DNA of 64,000 bases from Colletotrichum lupini. Taxonomy: Eukaryota; Ascomycota; Sordariomycetes; Glomerellales; Glomerellaceae. Where the stretch lies: contig NC_064673.1 of NCBI RefSeq assembly GCF_023278565.1, forward strand, positions 2,294,001 through 2,358,000, in the 5' to 3' direction. Shown here piece by piece: positions 30,004-42,207 of this stretch; the stretch's first letter is position 1; every line of letters begins with the position of its first letter. The notes below the pieces were generated by a model that was given only the letters and a program-made list of their open reading frames with translations, was not told the DNA's origin and ran no database searches. Position numbers and translations under genes: made by a program.

Positions 30004-30339
30004 CTAGTTCATATGGCAGATATCCAAGTACCAGTCTTGCGCTACCCAGGCCTCAGCTTTGCTACAAGCGCCATACGTGCATGAAGCGAGGGCATGGTGG
30101 GACCAGAAGCGCATGTGGAACATCTTGTCCATACAAAAGTCGTAGACGCTGACTTTGTTGATGTTGGGGGGGTACAGGTGATTCTCGCTTTGGAGACAAC
30201 CCTGCCAGCATTCGGGGAGCTGGTGAATTGGAAGTGGCCCCCTTGAGAGCGTTTCTTCGTCCTTGGGTCCTCCAAGTTCTCCTGCAACTGCAAGGGAGAC
30301 GCTGGAGAGGACGGCGAAGATTGTCGTCGTTGGCTTCAT
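30004..30339 (-). CDS. Small secreted 6-Cys protein, paralogue A (effector candidate)
   Basis: Single-exon gene for 111 residues. Signal peptide MKPTTTIFAVLSSVSLAVAG is followed by an 88-residue mature region with six Cys spaced C-x3-C-x20-C-x17-C-x4-C-x15-C. The first pair sits in LPECWQGCL, reminiscent of the start of CFEM domains (LPxCAxxC), and SCTYGACS recalls their later Cys pair, but two of the eight CFEM Cys are missing. A paralogue lies at 41887-42207: I count about 50 identities in 88 ungapped positions. Size, secretion and Cys content fit apoplastic effectors of plant-associated fungi (inference). A TATA box lies 134 bp upstream. Confidence 0.85.
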   Translation of the reverse strand: MKPTTTIFAVLSSVSLAVAGELGGPKDEETLSRGPLPIHQLPECWQGCLQSENHLYPPNINKVSVYDFCMDKMFHMRFWSHHALASCTYGACSKAEAWVAQDWYLDICHMN

Positions 30340-33856: not shown

Positions 33857-35187
33857 ATGGAATCCGTTGTTGAGACGGTTTCCTCCTCCGCCGCCTGGGT
33901 GATTGGCGTGACCCTGGCCATCGCCAACGCCTCGTTCGCATGGGTCTCTGCCTGGATCCCGGTTTTGTTGGTCTTCGACATGGCCGCGACCTCTTGGTGG
34001 GTCTGTCATTCTTTGGGTTCGTCCAATGTCCATCCCATCATCCCATCAAATCATCCCTTCTTTACTAACCGGTTCAAGCGACCATGTTCTTCATCCCTGC
34101 CCTCCAAGATCAACCTGCCTGGGCCGCTTTCGTCCCGATCTCTCGTGACCTCGCCACTGCCTACGCCCTCTTGGTTGTTTACGTCTTCGTCCTCTTTCAC
34201 ACAGCTGGCTGCCTGGTGTCCCTCTGGTGGTATTCGTACTGCATTATACGACGAGGGTACCGGATCCCGAGAGGAGCTGTCACCCGCCGAAAGGTGGTTA
34301 TGCAGACCCTGGCCGACGCCGACGATTCCCGGTACTGGTTCGACCTGGGGTTCCGACCCAACCTCTGCCTTCGCTGCTCCCGTAACGCCGACTTGGAAGG
34401 TGGGGAGGGCCCTGGGTCGATACTGGACCGGATGTACCACGGCACGACGAACAAGGGGGTGGACTTGGGGTGCATCGCGCTCTTTGACCACTATGTAAGT
34501 TATCCTCCTTCTCCCTCGTGTTGGCAGAGCTCGGCTAATGATTCTGGTCATCTGATCTAGTGTTGGTGGTTGTGGTGCCCGGTCTCCTTGGAGACTCAGA
34601 AGCCATACCTGCTCTTTATGGGTTGGGTTGTGGTCTTCCACCTTTACTCTTTGGGGGTTCTCTGCTGGCCTCTGGCGTCCTTTGGAACCAGGTGGTCGCT
34701 GCCCCCTGCTGTCGTGGCTGCCGGAGCCCTTCCCTTCGTATTCCTGTGGGTGAAGAAGGCGCCATTCCGGGGTCAATGGGTTAACCAGGGACTTCGGAAC
34801 CAGACGCACAAAGAGACGACGGCGTATATCCGGAACCTCCCCCAGCAGGCATGGCCGATGGGGATTGCCGGGCCTAACGGCTTGGAGCATGTGACGGTTG
34901 GATTTAACCCGTGGGATCTCGGCGCAATGGGAAACCTGCGCGCGGTGCTAGGCGACAGCATCTGGGAGTGGCCTTTCTTCTGGCGTACCCCTCGCAGGGT
35001 GCGTGAATTCGGTGCTCACCCCGATTGGGATCTCCCTTTCGGACCTCGGTGGGGCCAGTTCATGGAAGATCGTGCTCTGGTTGTACCAGTTGGGGGTCTA
35101 CCGGATGGCATTAGCCTCGCTCCTCTCCCTCCCGCCCTCCGCAACGACATTTCGCGGCGCCGACGCATTTGGAGTTCGGAGGATTAG
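33857..35187 (+). CDS. DHHC palmitoyltransferase-like membrane protein with degenerate DHYC motif
   Basis: Polytopic membrane protein of about 400 residues in three exons. The ATG at 33857 has a good context (GCAGCCATGG) and starts a hydrophobic segment. Intron 2 (34495-34560) is clear. Intron 1 ends at 34078, but its donor near 34017 is non-consensus, so that junction is tentative. The second and third exons join as FDHY-CWWLWC, matching the catalytic DHHC centre of protein S-acyltransferases (DHYC also occurs in Akr1-type enzymes). The rest of the Cys-rich domain is eroded: CLRC is present, but most zinc ligands are missing and the DHHC-to-Cys distance is one residue short. Activity is therefore doubtful. 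Lies next to the pyrimidine-rich repeat region. Confidence 0.72.
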
Positions 35188-35305: not shown

Positions 35306-35611
35306 CCAGTCTACTCTCGACAATACATGCAGCCTGCCGTGCAAACAGGCACCAATATGTATTACGCCTTCTCAGGACTGATGATCCTGGCAGGCCTCGC
35401 CCATCCATTCGAAATTTCGTTTGGACTTGGAGGATGACAACCTCTTTAAAAAATACGGCCGACAATGTCGCACCTTCACGCTGGTGTCGGCTGTCAGTAG
35501 TCGGAATTGCGATCGGGCGATCGAAGACGACGAAGCCAACGCGACGGCGGGTCACTGTTCTGTCATTGGAACACAACCTGCCACCCCTGGGTCTCTCAAA
35601 CTCTCGACAAG

Positions 35612-35636
35612 TCACACACTCACACTCACATTCACA

Positions 35637-35670
<34 letters not shown>
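35612..35670 (+). repeat. CACACT/CACTCT microsatellite
   Basis: About 59 bp of near-perfect hexamer repeats: first CACACT-type, then at least five CTCACT units. The plus strand carries no G. Confidence 0.85.
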
Positions 35671-36044
35671 ACTTCAACAAACACACATTGTGACTTCGAA
35701 CTCTTGCCTACCATCAAACACACGCCAGGCATTGTTCACCCCAGGGTTCCTTGCAGTCTCAACACTCTACACTCATCTCATCACTCCGGACCCATTGCAC
35801 ATCTATCATACCATCTGCAATGTGGCTTTGGCACAGGAAGTTTGCACAGCTACCTGCGAGACTGCAATCAACAGAGGCTCATCACCTCGGTAACCAACCT
35901 CGGCAATCATCCACACCTTGCCTTGAGGTTCGACCACCACTCTTCACTCAACAACATTCTCTTTCAACACTGTCTCCACAGACTCTTGACACAACTTATT
36001 TCCGACACAATCACGAACATCGGATGATTCATCAGTCGATCGAG

Positions 36045-36124
36045 ACATCAGTTGAGCGACACATCGCTTGAACAACACATCAGTTCAACGGCACATCAGC
36101 TGACTGACACATCAGTCAATCAAC
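36045..36124 (+). repeat. 16-bp minisatellite, five units
   Basis: Five consecutive 16-bp units, each starting ACATC and mostly continuing AG(T/C)T or GCTT: at 36045, 36061, 36077, 36093 and 36109, with a diverged unit just before. Adjacent units contain mutually complementary tails, for example GTTGAGCGA and TCGCTTGAAC, so inter-unit pairing is possible. Confidence 0.8.
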
Positions 36125-36417
36125 ATGGATAGCACCTTCGCTTCTCCATCATCAACATCTCTGGACTCCGCTTCAGATCGGCACATGGATGGTTTCTTCC
36201 TCATCCACGACTCACTTTGATCCATCTCTGGTCAAATTTGGTTCTCCATGCACTCGAACCATCTCTCCACATGCTTTCCAAGCAGCAGCAACTCGACCAT
36301 TTGTCCTCATCCCATTCTTACCAATCGATGACCTTTGGTTGACCCTCCAACATCCTTAAGACGTAACAATCTTGAGACGTAACACTCACACATCACGTCT
36401 CTTACCCGAACATTCTC

Positions 36418-37829
36418 GTTTCTGGGGCAGCAGAAACTCGGCAAACTATTTCGGCAGTTCTCACACTTTTGACTTCAAGCTCTTGGCTCTCTGTTCTCTT
36501 CATGATTCTTGGGCCACAGATACTCGGCATTTCACTTTCAGCCAACTATTTCATCTTCTTTGACTCTGGTCTTGGCACAGTGTTCCTGAAGCAGCAGGAA
36601 TACGACACACTTCTCTCATCCACACTCTCGGCTTGCGACTTAGCACTCGCGAACTCAGCCTTCTTCTTTCATCTCGTTTCTGGGGCAGCAGAAACGCGTC
36701 ACTCCATTTTGACGCAGCACTCCATTTCGGGTCATCACTTCATTCCCTTCACTTCGGTTTCCTTTTTTCTCACCCGCACTCTCAGCTCGCGACTTGGCAC
36801 TCGTGAACTCAACCTTCTTCTCTCATCTCGTTTCTGGGGCAGCAGAAACGCGTCACTCCACTTTGATGCAACACTCCATTCTGGGTCATCACTTCATTTC
36901 ACTCAGTTCAGTTTCCTTTGGCAGAGGAATTTGACAACTCATTACCTTTCTTCAACTCTTTCGGCAAATCTTTTCTTCACTTCGCGTTTCTGGGGCAGCA
37001 GAAACCCGACAACTCACCTCATTCAACATCTCTGAATTTCATTTCACTTTCCTCTGGCGGGAGGAATCAACGCTTCACACTTCTTTTTCTCTGGCCATTC
37101 CTGGCTACTCTTCACGTTTATGGGGCAGCAGAAACTGGGCACTTCACTCCGATTCGGCAATTTGGACCGGTTCGGCCTTCACTTCATGTTCCTGGTCATC
37201 GGAAGCCTGGCACAAACATATCCTTCAACTTCTTTGGCACCTTCTTGCCTTCACCTCACGTTTCTGGGGCAGCAGAAACTTGGCATCTCGCCTTATTCAA
37301 CAACTTTAAACTTCACTTCACTTTCCTCTGGCGCGAGGAAACCAGTGCTTCACACTTTCACTCGGCATTTCTGGGGCAGCAGAAATGTTCTCTCCTCACT
37401 TCGCTCTCTTGGCAACTTGAGCTCGACACCCAACGCATCAATCATCTTGTTTGGACTTCTCTCTTTTCCTTGCTTCCCATTCTTCTTCTGAGATAGCAGA
37501 AGCAGACATATGGCTCAACACATCTCATTTTTCACTCCCCGTTCCTCCGGCGACAGGAACCCAACAGATCACACTTTCTCTTCTTTTGCACTCTCCCCAT
37601 GTGTCTGGGGCAGCAGAAGCTCCTCAAATCACATGACAACGGCCCCTCTGATTCATCTCACTTCCAATGTCACAGGAGCTTGGCACTCCTCGCATATTCA
37701 AACCCTTCAAGCAATCTTCTATCTTTCAGCTTGCTTTTGAGGCAGCAGAAGCACCACACTTGACCACCCGCCGATCTCTATTCAAAACAGCCAGGCATCT
37801 CTCTCATTTCATTCTTGGATCAGCAAGGG
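36418..37829 (+). repeat. Array of about 19 covarying hairpins, unit about 70 bp
   Basis: Each unit has a 4-8 bp stem and a loop usually of six bases, then often (C/T)nGGCA..TTCAC. Five identical copies (stem GTTTCTG/CAGAAAC, loop GGGCAG) start at 36418, 36676, 36830, 36986 and 37260. Variants that keep pairing include TTCCTG/CAGGAA at 36583, TTCCT/AGGAA at 36913, TTCCTC/GAGGAA at 37049, TTTCCTC/GAGGAAA at 37322, CATTTCTG/CAGAAATG at 37366, CTTCTG/CAGAAG at 37485, GTTCCT/AGGAAC at 37541, GCTTTTG/CAGAAGC at 37733 and TTCTTG/CAAGGG (with G-U pairs) at 37812. Weaker members are at 36504, 37116, 37189, 37604 and 37662. Spacing is 44-154 bp, mostly 56-93 bp, not in multiples of three, so no protein frame is conserved. 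Either strand could be transcribed. Confidence 0.85.
36621..36928 (+). repeat. 154-bp tandem duplication inside the hairpin array
   Basis: Segments 36621-36774 and 36775-36928 align over their length with few substitutions, mostly transitions. Each holds one canonical hairpin. 154 is not a multiple of three. Confidence 0.85.
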
Positions 37830-39719
37830 TGATACACAACTCGCTCATCCAGCTGTTTGGCACTCTTCTCTCGGCTTTGCATCGGCACTTTTGGAGTCGG
37901 CTTCATTTGCTGACTCTTGGCGGCTGTCTTCGGGGCCTGCGGCGGACATCCCCCGGCCACCAGGCGGCAAATCGTCAGTCATTCATTATTGTCCACCTTT
38001 CTTCTTGATGCGACCTCGTCACTTGGAACCTTCACATCGGAGACGCCTTTCGACAAACGGGAAGGGGTCCGGTTGGCGCCGAGCTGAGAAGCGTTCTTCA
38101 CAGAACATTCCTTCAATGGGCACTTGAATGCTCAACCATTCTTCTCAGTAGATGGATCAATCGCACGCAACTGGGCGATCTGTTTGTCTTTTTCACATAC
38201 CCGGGGCGTGAATGCTAGGGCGGTGGAAAGATATGGCCTACCCGTGCTCACCCAAAGGCTTGTACTCTCGTCACGATCTAACGTTGCAGCTGCTGATCAG
38301 CACAGGTACCAGAACAACAGATCACGCAGCGCTAGCGTCTTGCTAATTCAGTCACTTGGAGCTTGCAGGCTGCGAGCTCAGAGTTGCAGTCGAGCGTTGT
38401 AACGGGACGTTGCAAGCCACCACCAATCAACGCCATAGACACCGGTACTTGAACCAGGATCAAGTACGTCACATCTTGATCGACATTCCATGATGGAAAT
38501 GTACTGATGTTCCGGCACAGGTGACGACGGTCTCATCGCTTTGCGAGCCAACCAGTATTTGGAGGTCTGCTCATGGTATGGTTTGGAATTACTGACCTGT
38601 GCTTCAGCTTCTTGAGTCGAAGTCTGGCCGCGCTTGTGGCTGTGTCGAAGCTCCTACTCGGACGACGCGTAAGGGTTCAACAGAGGCACGAAGATACGTT
38701 GCCGTGTCGCATATTGAATGGTCACCGAAACGGTATGTCTCGATTCAATTACTCTGTGCCCCTGCTTGACCACTGACCACAAGTCTCCGTCCAGTTCCCA
38801 GACAACTGCCAAGTCCAGACAGAATGCCGACTTTGAGAGACAAAATAGGGTATTGGTGGAAAGGGACATCTTGATCGGGTTGGAAAAGCTAGAGGATCGT
38901 TTTGGGATCCGCTACATGGAGGATTATCTAGAGGGCAAGGGGAGATGGCCAAGGGATGGAGTGCGGAACACCAGGGCATACTTGAGGCGAAAGTCATTCA
39001 GGACACGTGCATTTGGAGGCGATGAGCGATGCCATACATGGTAGAAGCAACGCGTTCAGATCTGTCGTTTGACAAGCAACCTCCGATAGGCAATTGTCAG
39101 CGATCTCTTGAGCTCCTGCCTATGATGACTTCGGTGTTTTCGCAGGATCAACGCAGGAATTTAGGTTTTGTTTCCACGCGCACATGTTTGCAAGTGCTGT
39201 AGTTCCTCTTTGTTGGAAGTCGATGCCAGGAGCATCTCGCCTACGAATCGCCGAGGTAAAACACGTTTAACAAAGAAGATGAACGTTGCAGAATTCTACT
39301 CGGCTGGGATCAAAGTCATACCAAGCTTGCAAATTGATCGACAGCATCAGGATGAACGGCCTCGCCACGTACGTCGTGGTGTCTCCTGGTCGTTGAGGCA
39401 AAGGAAGCGGCCCCGCTTTGGGGGGGGGGAAACGGCAACGCACCGTTGCCCGTCGGGGCCCGGGCGGACAAAGAAGCTATTCAGGTTGTGGTGAGCTTCG
39501 CCGTGAATAGCTTCTTTGTTTGTTGTGAACACAGTCAAAATCAAAGGCTTGATCATTCCTGGGTATCGCGTCTAGTTTAAACATCTCAAATCTGTAGATA
39601 AAGCTGCCCACCTCTGATTCTAAGATGATGGCCGCTCATGAGGGCGAAAAGCTTGTTCCGTGCCAAGTTAATTGTTCGTTTCTCTGCATAACACACTGGA
39701 CAGATTTTCTCGAGTCAGG
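37830..39719. other. Gene-poor DNA right of the hairpin array
   Basis: About 1.9 kb. It contains one doubtful open frame (38718-39044), a run of nine or more G near 39,420 followed by a GC-rich stretch, and the promoter of the F-box gene. Otherwise nothing recognised. Confidence 0.45.
38718..39044 (+). CDS. Hypothetical protein or exon, doubtful
   Basis: Open frame of 108 codons. The last two thirds (KSRQNADFERQNRVLVERD through YMEDYLEGKGRWPRDGV) are charged, amphipathic and look coding, with an ordinary amino acid mix. The first third is less convincing, so the true start or an upstream exon may differ. I do not recognise a family. It might be a remnant of a larger gene. Confidence 0.25.
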   Translation: MVTETVCLDSITLCPCLTTDHKSPSSSQTTAKSRQNADFERQNRVLVERDILIGLEKLEDRFGIRYMEDYLEGKGRWPRDGVRNTRAYLRRKSFRTRAFGGDERCHTW

Positions 39720-41174
39720 ATGACCTGCCTTCAATCTCTACCCCCCGAGACTATCTTGCAAATCGCAGCTTGTTCAGACCTCAGTTTCTCATGCCTTCGC
39801 CATCTCCGACTCACCTGTCGCGGCCTTGCCGTATATATCGCACCGCTCTTGTACCGCAAAGCTGTTCGGGACCACGCTGTTCTTCTGCGACTGGTGCGGA
39901 ACGACCAAAGCGATATCATTCTGCGGGTTTTGAAAAGCCAGATCAGGCCAGATTGTGTTGCACCTCAACACTACCTAGATAGCTGCCTCCACGACGCCCT
40001 TCTGGGAGGTCACCTCAAGGCTGCCGACGTCCTTTTCGGTAATGGAGCTGAACCTGTCTTTAGTATCGACGTTGCAAATCGCTCAGAGCATCGTGAGACC
40101 AGGGACTGGCTTCAAGTCCATGATGCAACGGGACTCGGGTCTCTCGCACTTGCAGCGAGAAGCCGCTATCACATGACGTTCTGGTATAAAGATTTTGAGC
40201 CTTACACATCCGAGGAAGAGTTCTGGACCTATAAGAAGAAGGCGATGAAGACTATCTTAGAGAAACTCAGATCCCATTTTGGTCGGGATTCAGATCAGTA
40301 TGGATTGAAGATATCGGAGGCCCATTATTTGAGAGATGAACACGAGGATGGGAAGAAGGAACCGATGCTTCGACATCCGAAATACGCCAGAGAGCTTGAC
40401 ATGGCCCTCGCCGAGGCTGCAACTGCAGACGGGCACTCTATCGAACTGATGGACTTCCTATTCGGGTGTGGAGCAACTGTCACCTGCGAACTCACACCGC
40501 AGCTTGCTGGGCATGCCTGGCACAATGCCCTGAACGAGGAAATTCCGGCTCTTTTCGAGGCCAAAGTGGATCTGCTCCTGCGTCATGACATCGACCCGAC
40601 GAGTGTTTGGACCTGGGAGGGTATGCGGACACCGATACAGTTTTTCCTCCGCAAGTTATACCGAAATTTTCAATACTTTGAGGAACCCGGCGCCTTCACA
40701 AATAAGGTCTTTGGTTATATGGAATACCTAGAGTCGCGTGGCTGCCTACGCTGGCCAAGATCCACTCTCAGATCCTTTGTGCTCAGCGTCGGAACTGTTC
40801 AGATCAACTGCATCATCGACTATCCTCGTGCGGAGGAGCACGATGATATGAGTACCACTAGTCTTATTGAAGACGCCACAGATGGTAGGCGTGAGCTTGA
40901 GCTCATATTTAAAGAGCCGGACCCATCCCTGCTACCACTCCGAGTAGCTCTATCGAACCAAATTGCACTGAAGCACTTCCGGGATCTGGTGATCCTACCG
41001 TCGCCCACATTCAGAGAGTGGGTTGATAAGGAGTCAATGTCCAACGCTATTCAAGATCTCGATAGAATGTTCAGGACTTTTTCTGTCTCGTCACCTAGTG
41101 TGGAAAGCACCCGTGCTGCAGAGGACCAGCTCAGCGAGAATCATCCTGGACCCGAGGATGAGAGTAGCAGTTAG
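39720..41174 (+). CDS. F-box protein with ankyrin-like region
   Basis: Single-exon protein of 484 residues from the ATG at 39720. The N-terminal F-box is visible as LQSLPPETILQIAACSDLS and LRLTCRGLAVYIAPLLYRKAV (residues about 3-45), the site that binds Skp1 in SCF ubiquitin ligases. The next 300 residues contain helical ankyrin-like stretches such as CLHDALLGGHLKAADVLFGNGA and SIELMDFLFGCGATV. Such F-box/ankyrin proteins are numerous and lineage-specific in filamentous fungi; the substrate is unknown. The C-terminus is Ser/Glu-rich and probably disordered. Confidence 0.78.
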   Translation: MTCLQSLPPETILQIAACSDLSFSCLRHLRLTCRGLAVYIAPLLYRKAVRDHAVLLRLVRNDQSDIILRVLKSQIRPDCVAPQHYLDSCLHDALLGGHLKAADVLFGNGAEPVFSIDVANRSEHRETRDWLQVHDATGLGSLALAARSRYHMTFWYKDFEPYTSEEEFWTYKKKAMKTILEKLRSHFGRDSDQYGLKISEAHYLRDEHEDGKKEPMLRHPKYARELDMALAEAATADGHSIELMDFLFGCGATVTCELTPQLAGHAWHNALNEEIPALFEAKVDLLLRHDIDPTSVWTWEGMRTPIQFFLRKLYRNFQYFEEPGAFTNKVFGYMEYLESRGCLRWPRSTLRSFVLSVGTVQINCIIDYPRAEEHDDMSTTSLIEDATDGRRELELIFKEPDPSLLPLRVALSNQIALKHFRDLVILPSPTFREWVDKESMSNAIQDLDRMFRTFSVSSPSVESTRAAEDQLSENHPGPEDESSS

Positions 41175-41886: not shown

Positions 41887-42207
41887 ATGAAGTTCACCAC
41901 TATTCTTCTTGCCGTATTGCCTCTCGTTGCCGCCGGCGGAGGCCCAAAGGACCCAAATAGTCTTCCGAGGATACGACTTCCGCTTCACGAACTGCCCGAG
42001 TGCTGGCAGGAGTGTTTGCAGCTAGAAAACAACCACTACCCTCCCAATATCAACAATGTTAACGTACACGACTTTTGTGTCGACAACGGCTACCACCTCC
42101 GATGGTGGTCTTTCCACACCCTCGCTACATGCACAGCGGGCAAATGCAATAGGGAAGAAGGCTTACAGTCACAGGAGTGGCTGTTCGATCTCTGCAAAAT
42201 GAACTAG
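41887..42207 (+). CDS. Small secreted 6-Cys protein, paralogue B (effector candidate)
   Basis: Single-exon gene for 106 residues: signal peptide MKFTTILLAVLPLVAAG, then an 88-residue mature chain starting GPKD. The six Cys keep exactly the spacing of paralogue A. Conserved blocks are LPECWQ-CLQ-EN, YPPNIN-V, DFC-D, and the last residues D-x-C-x-MN. The surface between the Cys varies, with charge changes near the C-terminal half, a pattern often seen in effector families (inference). It lies 11.5 kb from its paralogue on the opposite strand. Confidence 0.85.
   Translation: MKFTTILLAVLPLVAAGGGPKDPNSLPRIRLPLHELPECWQECLQLENNHYPPNINNVNVHDFCVDNGYHLRWWSFHTLATCTAGKCNREEGLQSQEWLFDLCKMN

What the first reader, a model, noticed from the sequence alone, without database searches (positions are those of the whole stretch)
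36418..37829. Array of about 19 stem-loops with compensatory changes, unknown class
Seen directly: a 1.4-kb stretch carries a hairpin about every 70 bp. Five copies are identical (stem GTTTCTG/CAGAAAC, loop GGGCAG). At least eight others differ in the stem on both arms so pairing is kept: T-A to C-G at the third pair (36583, 37049, 37322), G-C to C-G at the stem base next to the loop (37049, 37322), extension to 8 bp (37366), and others at 37485, 37541 and 37733. Spacing is not a multiple of three, so a protein repeat does not explain it. Paired changes suggest selection on an RNA or DNA structure. A known caveat is that template switching inside quasi-palindromes can also create paired changes without selection. 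The surrounding DNA is pyrimidine-rich on the plus strand, as in some long non-coding transcripts.
Basis: partly seen in the sequence, partly recalled or inferred. Interest (0 to 1): 0.88.

Follow-up and report, generated by a model that had tools for sequence, protein, structure and literature searches.

The report
Ribozyme-headed fungal hairpin-array RNA
In a Colletotrichum fungus, a 1.4-kb stretch between two genes carries 19 copies of a small hairpin (16 still well paired) whose two arms have changed together, about 0.9 kb downstream of a predicted self-cutting ribozyme, so it likely makes a non-coding RNA that would gather many copies of a protein.

Summary
Nineteen hairpin units (16 with at least 6 of 7 pairs; mean spacing 77 bp; all on the + strand) lie at 36,418-37,830; DNA search found no second copy in the 63-Mb genome, a Colletotrichum of the acutatum group. 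Five of seven stem pairs show changes on both arms. Pairing, doubly changed cells and covariation exceed all of 1,000 tree-aware simulations. In two internal duplications hairpin cores changed at 1 of 61 sites, flanks at 34 of 191. The loop core GGC is conserved. TYGGCA occurs 18 times on the + strand of the surrounding G-poor domain and never on the other, ten times background. Two ORFs searched have no relative.

New here: a fungal-type HDV-like ribozyme is predicted at 35,457-35,545, at the 5' edge of the pyrimidine-rich domain (35,590-37,950), with P1, P2, P3, P4, L3, C-N-A-A and loop E, though under Rfam's cut-off.

Most likely this is a long non-coding RNA whose 5' end is trimmed by the ribozyme and whose array presents GGC(A) motifs to a protein many times over. 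Transcription, cleavage, conservation in sister species and the partner are untested.

The parts
35457..35545 (+). predicted fungal-type HDV-like self-cleaving ribozyme; cleavage predicted 5' of G35457, candidate catalytic C at 35536
   Evidence: Rfam RF00094 full length but sub-gathering, 24.8 bits; double-pseudoknot descriptor; loop E feature as in PMC5640933 section 7
35590..37950 (+). G-poor, pyrimidine-rich domain without credible ORF; likely body of the RNA (ends inferred from composition)
   Evidence: composition, hexamer coding score, motif strand bias
36030..36117 (+). 5.5 copies of a 16-bp repeat; neighbours can pair into small hairpins
   Evidence: folds z -1.56 on +, -0.83 on -: weak
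36418..36437 (+). hairpin unit, type A, 7/7 pairs
36503..36522 (+). degenerate unit (5/7 pairs, no stable fold)
   Evidence: (31.9 bits)
36582..36601 (+). hairpin unit, 7/7 pairs incl. one G.U
36676..36695 (+). hairpin unit, type A
36830..36849 (+). hairpin unit, type A, in the second copy of a 154-bp duplication (36611-36764 / 36765-36918)
36911..36930 (+). hairpin unit, type B-like, 6/7 pairs
36986..37005 (+). hairpin unit, type A
37048..37067 (+). hairpin unit, type B, G-C to C-G next to the loop
37116..37135 (+). hairpin unit, type A with one mismatch
37188..37206 (+). degenerate unit, not in the training set
   Evidence: 18.3 bits
37260..37279 (+). hairpin unit, type A
37322..37341 (+). 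hairpin unit, type B
37366..37387 (+). hairpin unit, type A, 8 pairs
37484..37503 (+). hairpin unit, 6/7 pairs
37541..37560 (+). hairpin unit, type B-like, 6/7 pairs
37601..37620 (+). hairpin unit, type A-like, 6/7 pairs; a different fold is more stable in isolation
37658..37677 (+). degenerate unit
   Evidence: 20.2 bits
37733..37752 (+). hairpin unit, 7/7 pairs incl. one U.G
37811..37830 (+). last hairpin unit, 7/7 pairs incl. two G.U, very diverged stem
37880..37919 (+). strong hairpin at the 3' edge of the domain
   Evidence: z -4.52

Best explanation
The stretch holds 19 hairpin units with paired arm changes in a G-poor domain headed by a predicted HDV-like ribozyme, and it is likely a long non-coding RNA that would hold many copies of one RNA-binding protein. 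Steps: (1) transcription runs + through 35,457, from its own start or by read-through from the gene that ends at 35,187 (inferred); (2) the ribozyme cuts 5' of G35457 and leaves a 5'-hydroxyl, uncapped RNA of about 2.5 kb (predicted from structure); (3) the G-poor linkers let each 20-nt hairpin fold on its own and show its NGGCAG or UGGCGS loop (folding and conservation computed, not probed); (4) the loops and the TYGGCA motifs in the linkers are bound by one GGC(A)-reading protein, which the RNA titrates or gathers (inferred; partner unknown).
For: Covariation: 5 of 7 pairs changed on both sides, 90.4% of 125 cells paired; 0 of 500 column shuffles reach the observed paired cells, doubly changed cells or covariation score, 15 of 500 the number of pairs, 5 of 500 the pair types; tree-aware null: 0 of 1000 for the first three, 39 of 1000 for number of pairs. 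Core against flank in two internal duplications: 1/61 against 34/191 sites changed, Fisher p 0.0005. Loop columns G2 15/18, G3 16/18, C4 16/18. TYGGCA 18 on +, 0 on -, 7.6 per kb against 0.65-0.76 elsewhere; 1000 dinucleotide shuffles reach at most 9. Ribozyme: full-length RF00094 match without non-standard pairs in the part shown; the P2 pseudoknot, whose pairing that model does not score, is present; descriptor with P4 and loop E 0 times in 5.95 billion random strand-bases, without them 54 times; a loop E in P4 is what Li and Breaker report for fungal variants. Not protein: one array ORF and one ORF downstream of it have no relative, coding scores are at or below 0.14 against 0.30 and 0.32 for two genes that were in the training set; both duplications (154 and 274 bp apart) shift the frame while the hairpins stay.
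Against: No transcript, cleavage or orthologue could be examined. The ribozyme is below Rfam's gathering score (24.8 of 50); the whole-genome search with RF00094 listed nothing, this site included, and its sub-cut-off matches in 4 of 14 control genomes show that weak matches can be chance. Its P4 is no more stable than shuffles (z -0.30); its cleavage-site pair is G.U, not the C-G typical of fungal variants. The link between ribozyme and array is adjacency and strand only. With the 3' arm slid by +2 columns, 5 doubly changed pairs and 13 pair types also arise, so those two measures do not discriminate. Long-range pairing between units competes in the fold of 1 kb, and whole-region folding is only modestly better than shuffles (z -2.57 on +, -1.40 on -); local folding differs little between strands (13.0% against 8.8% of windows at z < -2). 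Seven consecutive spacings are multiples of three. G.U against A.C in the stems is 6 to 3, not decisive.
Confidence: 0.5

Rival explanations
1. A long, pyrimidine-rich 5' leader of a protein-coding gene, with the hairpins controlling its translation or decay.
For: Two other C/T-rich 2.3-kb stretches in the background sample (L034, L035) read by eye like 5' leaders of coding exons on the same strand. The F-box-like gene on the same strand starts near 39,720.
Against: The C/T-rich composition ends near 37,950, about 1.8 kb before that gene; none of six tested splice-donor hexamers occurs on + in 35,550-37,950; the ORF in between that I judged most plausible (38,718-39,041) has no relative, and no ORF of at least 60 aa in 35.2-39.7 kb has a coding score like the two known genes (the test has limited power).
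Confidence: 0.2
2. Neutral tandem repeat whose paired changes come from template switching inside quasi-palindromes.
For: The array grew by duplication (154-bp pair 88% alike, 98-nt pair 84% alike), and template switching makes paired changes without selection.
Against: Flanks diverge while cores do not (1/61 against 34/191); the non-palindromic loop is conserved; single pairs changed apart from each other, with G.U steps; nine A-type cores are 90% alike and their flanks 37%, aligned without gaps.
Confidence: 0.14
3. 5' remnant of a ribozyme-bearing non-LTR retrotransposon, kept or decaying.
For: HDV-like ribozymes mark the 5' ends of R2 and L1Tc-type elements (PMC3774820 passages; PMC4035085 listing and start of abstract).
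Against: No other copy of the ribozyme stretch or of the array found in the genome; no Pfam match at E <= 0.1 in the ten ORFs tested in 34.5-39.5 kb.
Confidence: 0.1
4. Cluster of double-stranded DNA binding palindromes for a transcription factor.
For: Inverted half-sites, clustered between genes (sequence itself).
Against: Different stems (TTTCTG, TTTCCTC, ATTCTTG) keep pairing rather than one sequence; the asymmetric loop always has the same orientation; TYGGCA is on one strand only.
Confidence: 0.05

Closest known systems
Xist A-repeat (mammalian long non-coding RNA)
   Same: Tandem short hairpins with unstructured pyrimidine-rich linkers, proposed as a platform for many proteins; inter-repeat pairing proposed there and possible here (PMC5742192 passages).
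   Different: 7.5-8.5 copies of 26-mers with AUCG loops against 19 copies with NGGCAG/UGGCGS loops; no relation in sequence known to me; no SPEN test.
HDV-like self-cleaving ribozymes, fungal loop-E variants
   Same: P1, P2, P3, P4, L3 with U and CG, C-N-A-A before P2', loop E in P4.
   Different: G.U instead of the usual C-G at the cleavage site; score under Rfam's cut-off; here it heads a hairpin-array domain. The main text of PMC5640933 has no occurrence of Colletotrichum or tandem; its figures and supplements were not seen.
CsrB/RsmZ bacterial sponge RNAs (recalled; the paper search, listed nothing)
   Same: About 20 hairpins that show one short G-rich loop motif and titrate a protein (recalled).
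   Different: GGA loops for CsrA, bacterial, about 0.4 kb; no CsrA in fungi (all recalled).
R2 retrotransposon 5' end
   Same: HDV-like ribozyme frees an RNA from a co-transcript (PMC3774820 passages).
   Different: R2 encodes a reverse transcriptase (recalled) and lies in many 28S genes; no such ORF and no second copy found here.

Membership tests
HDV-like ribozyme (RF00094) | 7-bp P1, 3-bp P3, P2 pseudoknot of 5 bp | tested here: met
HDV-like ribozyme (RF00094) | L3 with U...CG and C-N-A-A joining strand with the catalytic C (roles recalled) | tested here: met
   UUCACGCU and CCAAC
HDV-like ribozyme (RF00094) | two-pair P1.1 | tested here: inconclusive
   read by eye: one G-C pair possible, second position U-U
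HDV-like ribozyme (RF00094) | Rfam gathering score of 50 bits | tested here: not met
   24.8 bits; nothing listed genome-wide
HDV-like ribozyme, fungal variant | loop E motif in P4 | tested here: met
   AGUA-GUCG...CGAC-GAA against PMC5640933 section 7; that the motif is AGUA/GAA is recalled
HDV-like ribozyme, fungal variant | C-G pair at the cleavage site (typical, not universal) | tested here: not met
   G35457.U35492; PMC5640933 section 7
HDV-like ribozyme, fungal variant | extra nucleotide between P2 and P3 | tested here: inconclusive
   C35471 can be that nucleotide or the last pair of P2
HDV-like ribozyme (RF00094) | self-cleavage at the base of P1 | not testable with these tools
   needs an in vitro transcript
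Xist A-repeat | tandem hairpins with unstructured pyrimidine-rich linkers | tested here: met
   computed only; definition from passages
Xist A-repeat | 26-mer with AUCG tetraloop | tested here: not met
   loops NGGCAG/UGGCGS
non-LTR retrotransposon | reverse transcriptase or further copies | tested here: not met
any Rfam family, for the array itself | gathering score or E <= 5 | tested here: not met
protein-coding gene | open frame with relatives and coding score | tested here: not met
   (one array ORF and one ORF downstream were searched for relatives; the score has limited power)

The most novel reading that the evidence does not exclude
A new class of fungal regulatory RNA: an HDV-like ribozyme cuts its own 5' leader off and frees an uncapped long RNA whose roughly twenty hairpins and interspersed YGGCA motifs titrate or assemble one RNA-binding protein, a eukaryotic counterpart of CsrB sponges with Xist-like repeat architecture.
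Probability: 0.3. Interest if true: 0.88.

Novelty: new variant of a known kind. Interest (0 to 1): 0.7.

Why it matters
Fungal HDV-like ribozymes are reported as 230 examples from 26 species with widely variable gene associations (PMC5640933, section 7 read); what they do in the cell is, as far as I know, open. Here one stands at the edge of a domain with its own strong evidence of selection on structure, which gives a testable job: making the 5' end of a multi-hairpin RNA. If right, it adds a repeat-hairpin RNA to a kingdom where structure-tested long non-coding RNAs are few (recalled), with a defined bait (a 20-nt hairpin and YGGCA) for finding the partner protein.

Tried and rejected
Protein repeat: three + frames stay open for long because the strand is pyrimidine-rich; stops occur in every frame of the array, the one array ORF searched has no relative at E <= 10, the duplications shift the frame. 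Rejected, although 11 of 18 spacings are multiples of three.

Satellite or dispersed repeat: the array DNA matches only this locus in the genome, itself and a second internal match. Core pattern with up to 3 mismatches: 36 + and 29 - places, control 64 and 55; all 7 places with 0-1 mismatch are in the array. A wider pattern for both hairpin types with up to 1 mismatch: 68 + 65 places against 202 + 199 for the control; 9 of the 12 exact places are in the array, three outside (the list of one-mismatch places was cut off). The three outside lie in L033, L034 and L036; the model finds there 1, 2 and 0 matches of 12.6-16.3 bits, no array. Exact core in IMG/VR and GTDB contigs: none.

A second ribozyme flanking the array: none on either strand in 35.2-42.0 kb. 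The descriptor with a free L3 is unspecific (2 sites in 20 kb of control). Other loop-E-like cores in the genome: 4 other matches to one pattern and 16 to another, at control level; I saw no P4 helix in those strings by eye. Rfam at gathering threshold shows only a tRNA.

The 16-bp repeat at 36030-36117 folds little better than shuffles (z -1.56).

Paper searches on fungal tandem-hairpin RNAs and on HDV-like ribozymes with fungi or lncRNA listed nothing like this; except for the passages named in the report, I saw listings and abstract starts only. That is not proof of novelty.

Full report
Where it is. The flanking gene at 39.7-41.2 kb is 99% identical to a Colletotrichum abscissum protein and 88% to C. 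fioriniae, so the window is from a fungus of the C. acutatum group (lineage); the genome has 63.44 Mb in 12 contigs. The array lies between a + gene whose last exon ends at 35,187 (reads like a DHHC-type membrane protein by eye; no Pfam match) and the + F-box-like gene (name from relatives' records; no Pfam match of its own).

The array. Twenty candidate units were found by eye and alignment. Eighteen went into the alignment A2; 36756 was left out because a 154-bp tandem duplication ends inside it, and 37188 because it is gapped. In the first half two kinds alternate (by eye): A, GTTTCTG-GGGCAG-CAGAAAC, and B, TTTCCTC-TGGCGS-GAGGAAA. The covariance model finds 19 units, 18.3 to 47.7 bits, all +, 36406-37838. 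The next best places in the window have 13.1 bits or less and include the reverse strand of the same palindromes. Background: 6 matches of 10.0 to 16.3 bits in 199,604 bases, both strands. Of the 19 units 16 keep at least 6 of 7 pairs, G.U counted; three are degenerate, and 37601 has a more stable other fold on its own.

Covariation. Of 7 pairs, 5 have changes on both sides, 1 varies on one side only, 1 departs only by unpaired cells; 107 of 125 cells are Watson-Crick, 6 G.U, 3 A.C, 9 other. Sliding the 3' arm by 1-3 columns drops pairing from 90.4% to 36.5-65.6% and the covariation score from 0.409 to 0.100-0.247; but the slide by +2 also has 5 doubly changed pairs and more pair types, 13 against 11. 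Because the units are related by duplication I repeated the test with substitutions re-placed on a FastTree tree of the 18 units: simulated pairing 76.6% (sd 5.0), doubly changed cells 4.8 (sd 2.4), covariation 0.213 (sd 0.049), against 90.4%, 15 and 0.409 observed; none of 1000 simulations reaches these three; 39 of 1000 reach five doubly changed pairs. The tree rests on 42 columns and is rough.

Constraint. The 154-bp duplication differs at 19 sites, none in its 22-nt A hairpin; the 98-nt pair differs at 16, none in the A core, 1 in the B core, 15 of 59 in the flanks. Pooled: 1/61 core against 34/191 flank sites (p 0.0005). Nine A-type units are on average 90% identical in the core and 37% in 60 flanking bases, aligned without gaps. 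This speaks against neutral turnover and against conversion tracts that would spare exactly 20 nt. Template switching could still have supplied some paired changes.

Strand. All units share one orientation. Linkers are 35% C, 34% T, 20% A, 12% G; hairpins 32% G. TYGGCA: 18 on +, 0 on - in 35590-37950; the rest of the window and 200 kb of background have 0.65-0.76 per kb; two other C/T-rich stretches have 1 each; 1000 dinucleotide shuffles average 2.6, maximum 9. Thirteen of the 18 lie in 36400-37850, 3 before and 2 after; four lie 20-22 bases after a unit start and one in a loop. GGC is also the conserved loop core. A dsDNA site would not be expected on one strand only, so a single-stranded nucleic acid, most simply an RNA, is the likely target of selection. 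Folding energy separates the strands less clearly: 1 kb of array z -2.57 on +, -1.40 on -; 40-nt windows at z < -2: 13.0% on +, 8.8% on -, against 3.3% and 4.1% downstream of the array (37,850-39,700).

The ribozyme. A permissive Rfam scan of 3 kb gave one match in 4227 families: RF00094, full length, 24.8 bits, E 1.1 (E 0.11 in a 301-base stretch). The alignment, of which the middle is not printed, shows no non-standard pair. The P2 pseudoknot (GUCGC/GCGAC) is present. A descriptor with P1, P2, P3, L3 and C-N-A-A finds this site alone in the window and none in 200 kb of background, and 54 sites in 5.95 billion random strand-bases; with P4 and loop E, none. That descriptor was written after seeing the site, but loop E is an independent feature: Li and Breaker (PMC5640933; abstract, passages and section 7 read; figures and supplements not seen) report 230 fungal HDV variants in 26 species whose P4 is partly replaced by a loop E motif, and show cleavage for two. 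Against: score under the cut-off; a whole-genome search with the family listed nothing, this site included, and gave weak matches in 4 of 14 control genomes; P4 not more stable than shuffles; G.U at the cleavage site; P1.1 doubtful. The C/T-rich composition begins directly after the ribozyme, which suggests that it forms the 5' end of the same RNA. This is inference from position.

Not protein-coding, not a known RNA. Only two ORFs were searched for relatives. The hexamer test has limited power: a short exon judged real (34,561-35,184) scores only 0.044, close to the best array frames (0.04-0.06), and the two genes scoring 0.30 and 0.32 were in the training set. None of six splice-donor hexamers tested lies in the domain, and none of five poly(A)-type hexamers to 39,650, so the 3' end is not marked; the strong hairpin at 37,880-37,919 (z -4.52) and the end of the composition bias near 37,950 are the only hints.

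Mechanism. Shown by computation: the repeated hairpin, its covariation, constraint on cores, conserved GGC loop, one-stranded TYGGCA. Predicted: ribozyme. Inferred: transcription, 5'-hydroxyl RNA, protein partner, titration or scaffold. I commit to a ribozyme-trimmed non-coding RNA that multiplies binding sites for one GGC(A)-reading protein; the architecture is that of the Xist A-repeat (PMC5742192 passages) or bacterial CsrB (recalled), membership in neither. The long 5' leader of a gene is the main rival, since two other C/T-rich stretches in this genome look like leaders.

Limits. No DNA of sister species, no RNA data, and the genome could be searched only by pattern, DNA, protein and family. 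Whether other loci carry the same motif cluster is unanswered.

Noticed in passing
35457-35545: Predicted HDV-like ribozyme of the fungal loop-E type at the edge of the domain; became part of the finding.
   Followed up: yes
36030-36117: 5.5 copies of a 16-bp repeat in which the end of one copy can pair with the start of the next (TTGAGCGA-CACA-TCGCTTGA, TGACTGA-CACA-TCAGTCA), a second, smaller hairpin series; not significant as a whole.
   Followed up: partly
35545-35584: Strong hairpin (z -3.96) directly after the ribozyme.
   Followed up: no
41887-42207 (+) and 30007-30339 (-): Two related small secreted-looking proteins of 106 and 111 aa with several cysteines (LPLHELPECWQ.. / LPIHQLPECWQ..), on opposite strands about 12 kb apart; read by eye.
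   Followed up: no
39470-39517: Inverted repeat AAAGAAGCTATTCA...TGAATAGCTTCTTT upstream of the F-box-like gene.
   Followed up: no
L037, L043, L044, L045: Stretches of 23-27% GC in a genome whose window is near 52% GC, rich in perfect hairpins; probably mutated repeats, and a trap for hairpin-density scans.
   Followed up: partly
L033:4850-4872: An exact copy of the B hairpin TTCCTCTGGCGGGAGGAA alone on contig C8, without an array in the 9.9 kb fetched.
   Followed up: partly
37322-37811: Seven consecutive unit spacings are multiples of three although no frame stays open throughout; unexplained, possibly chance.
   Followed up: partly
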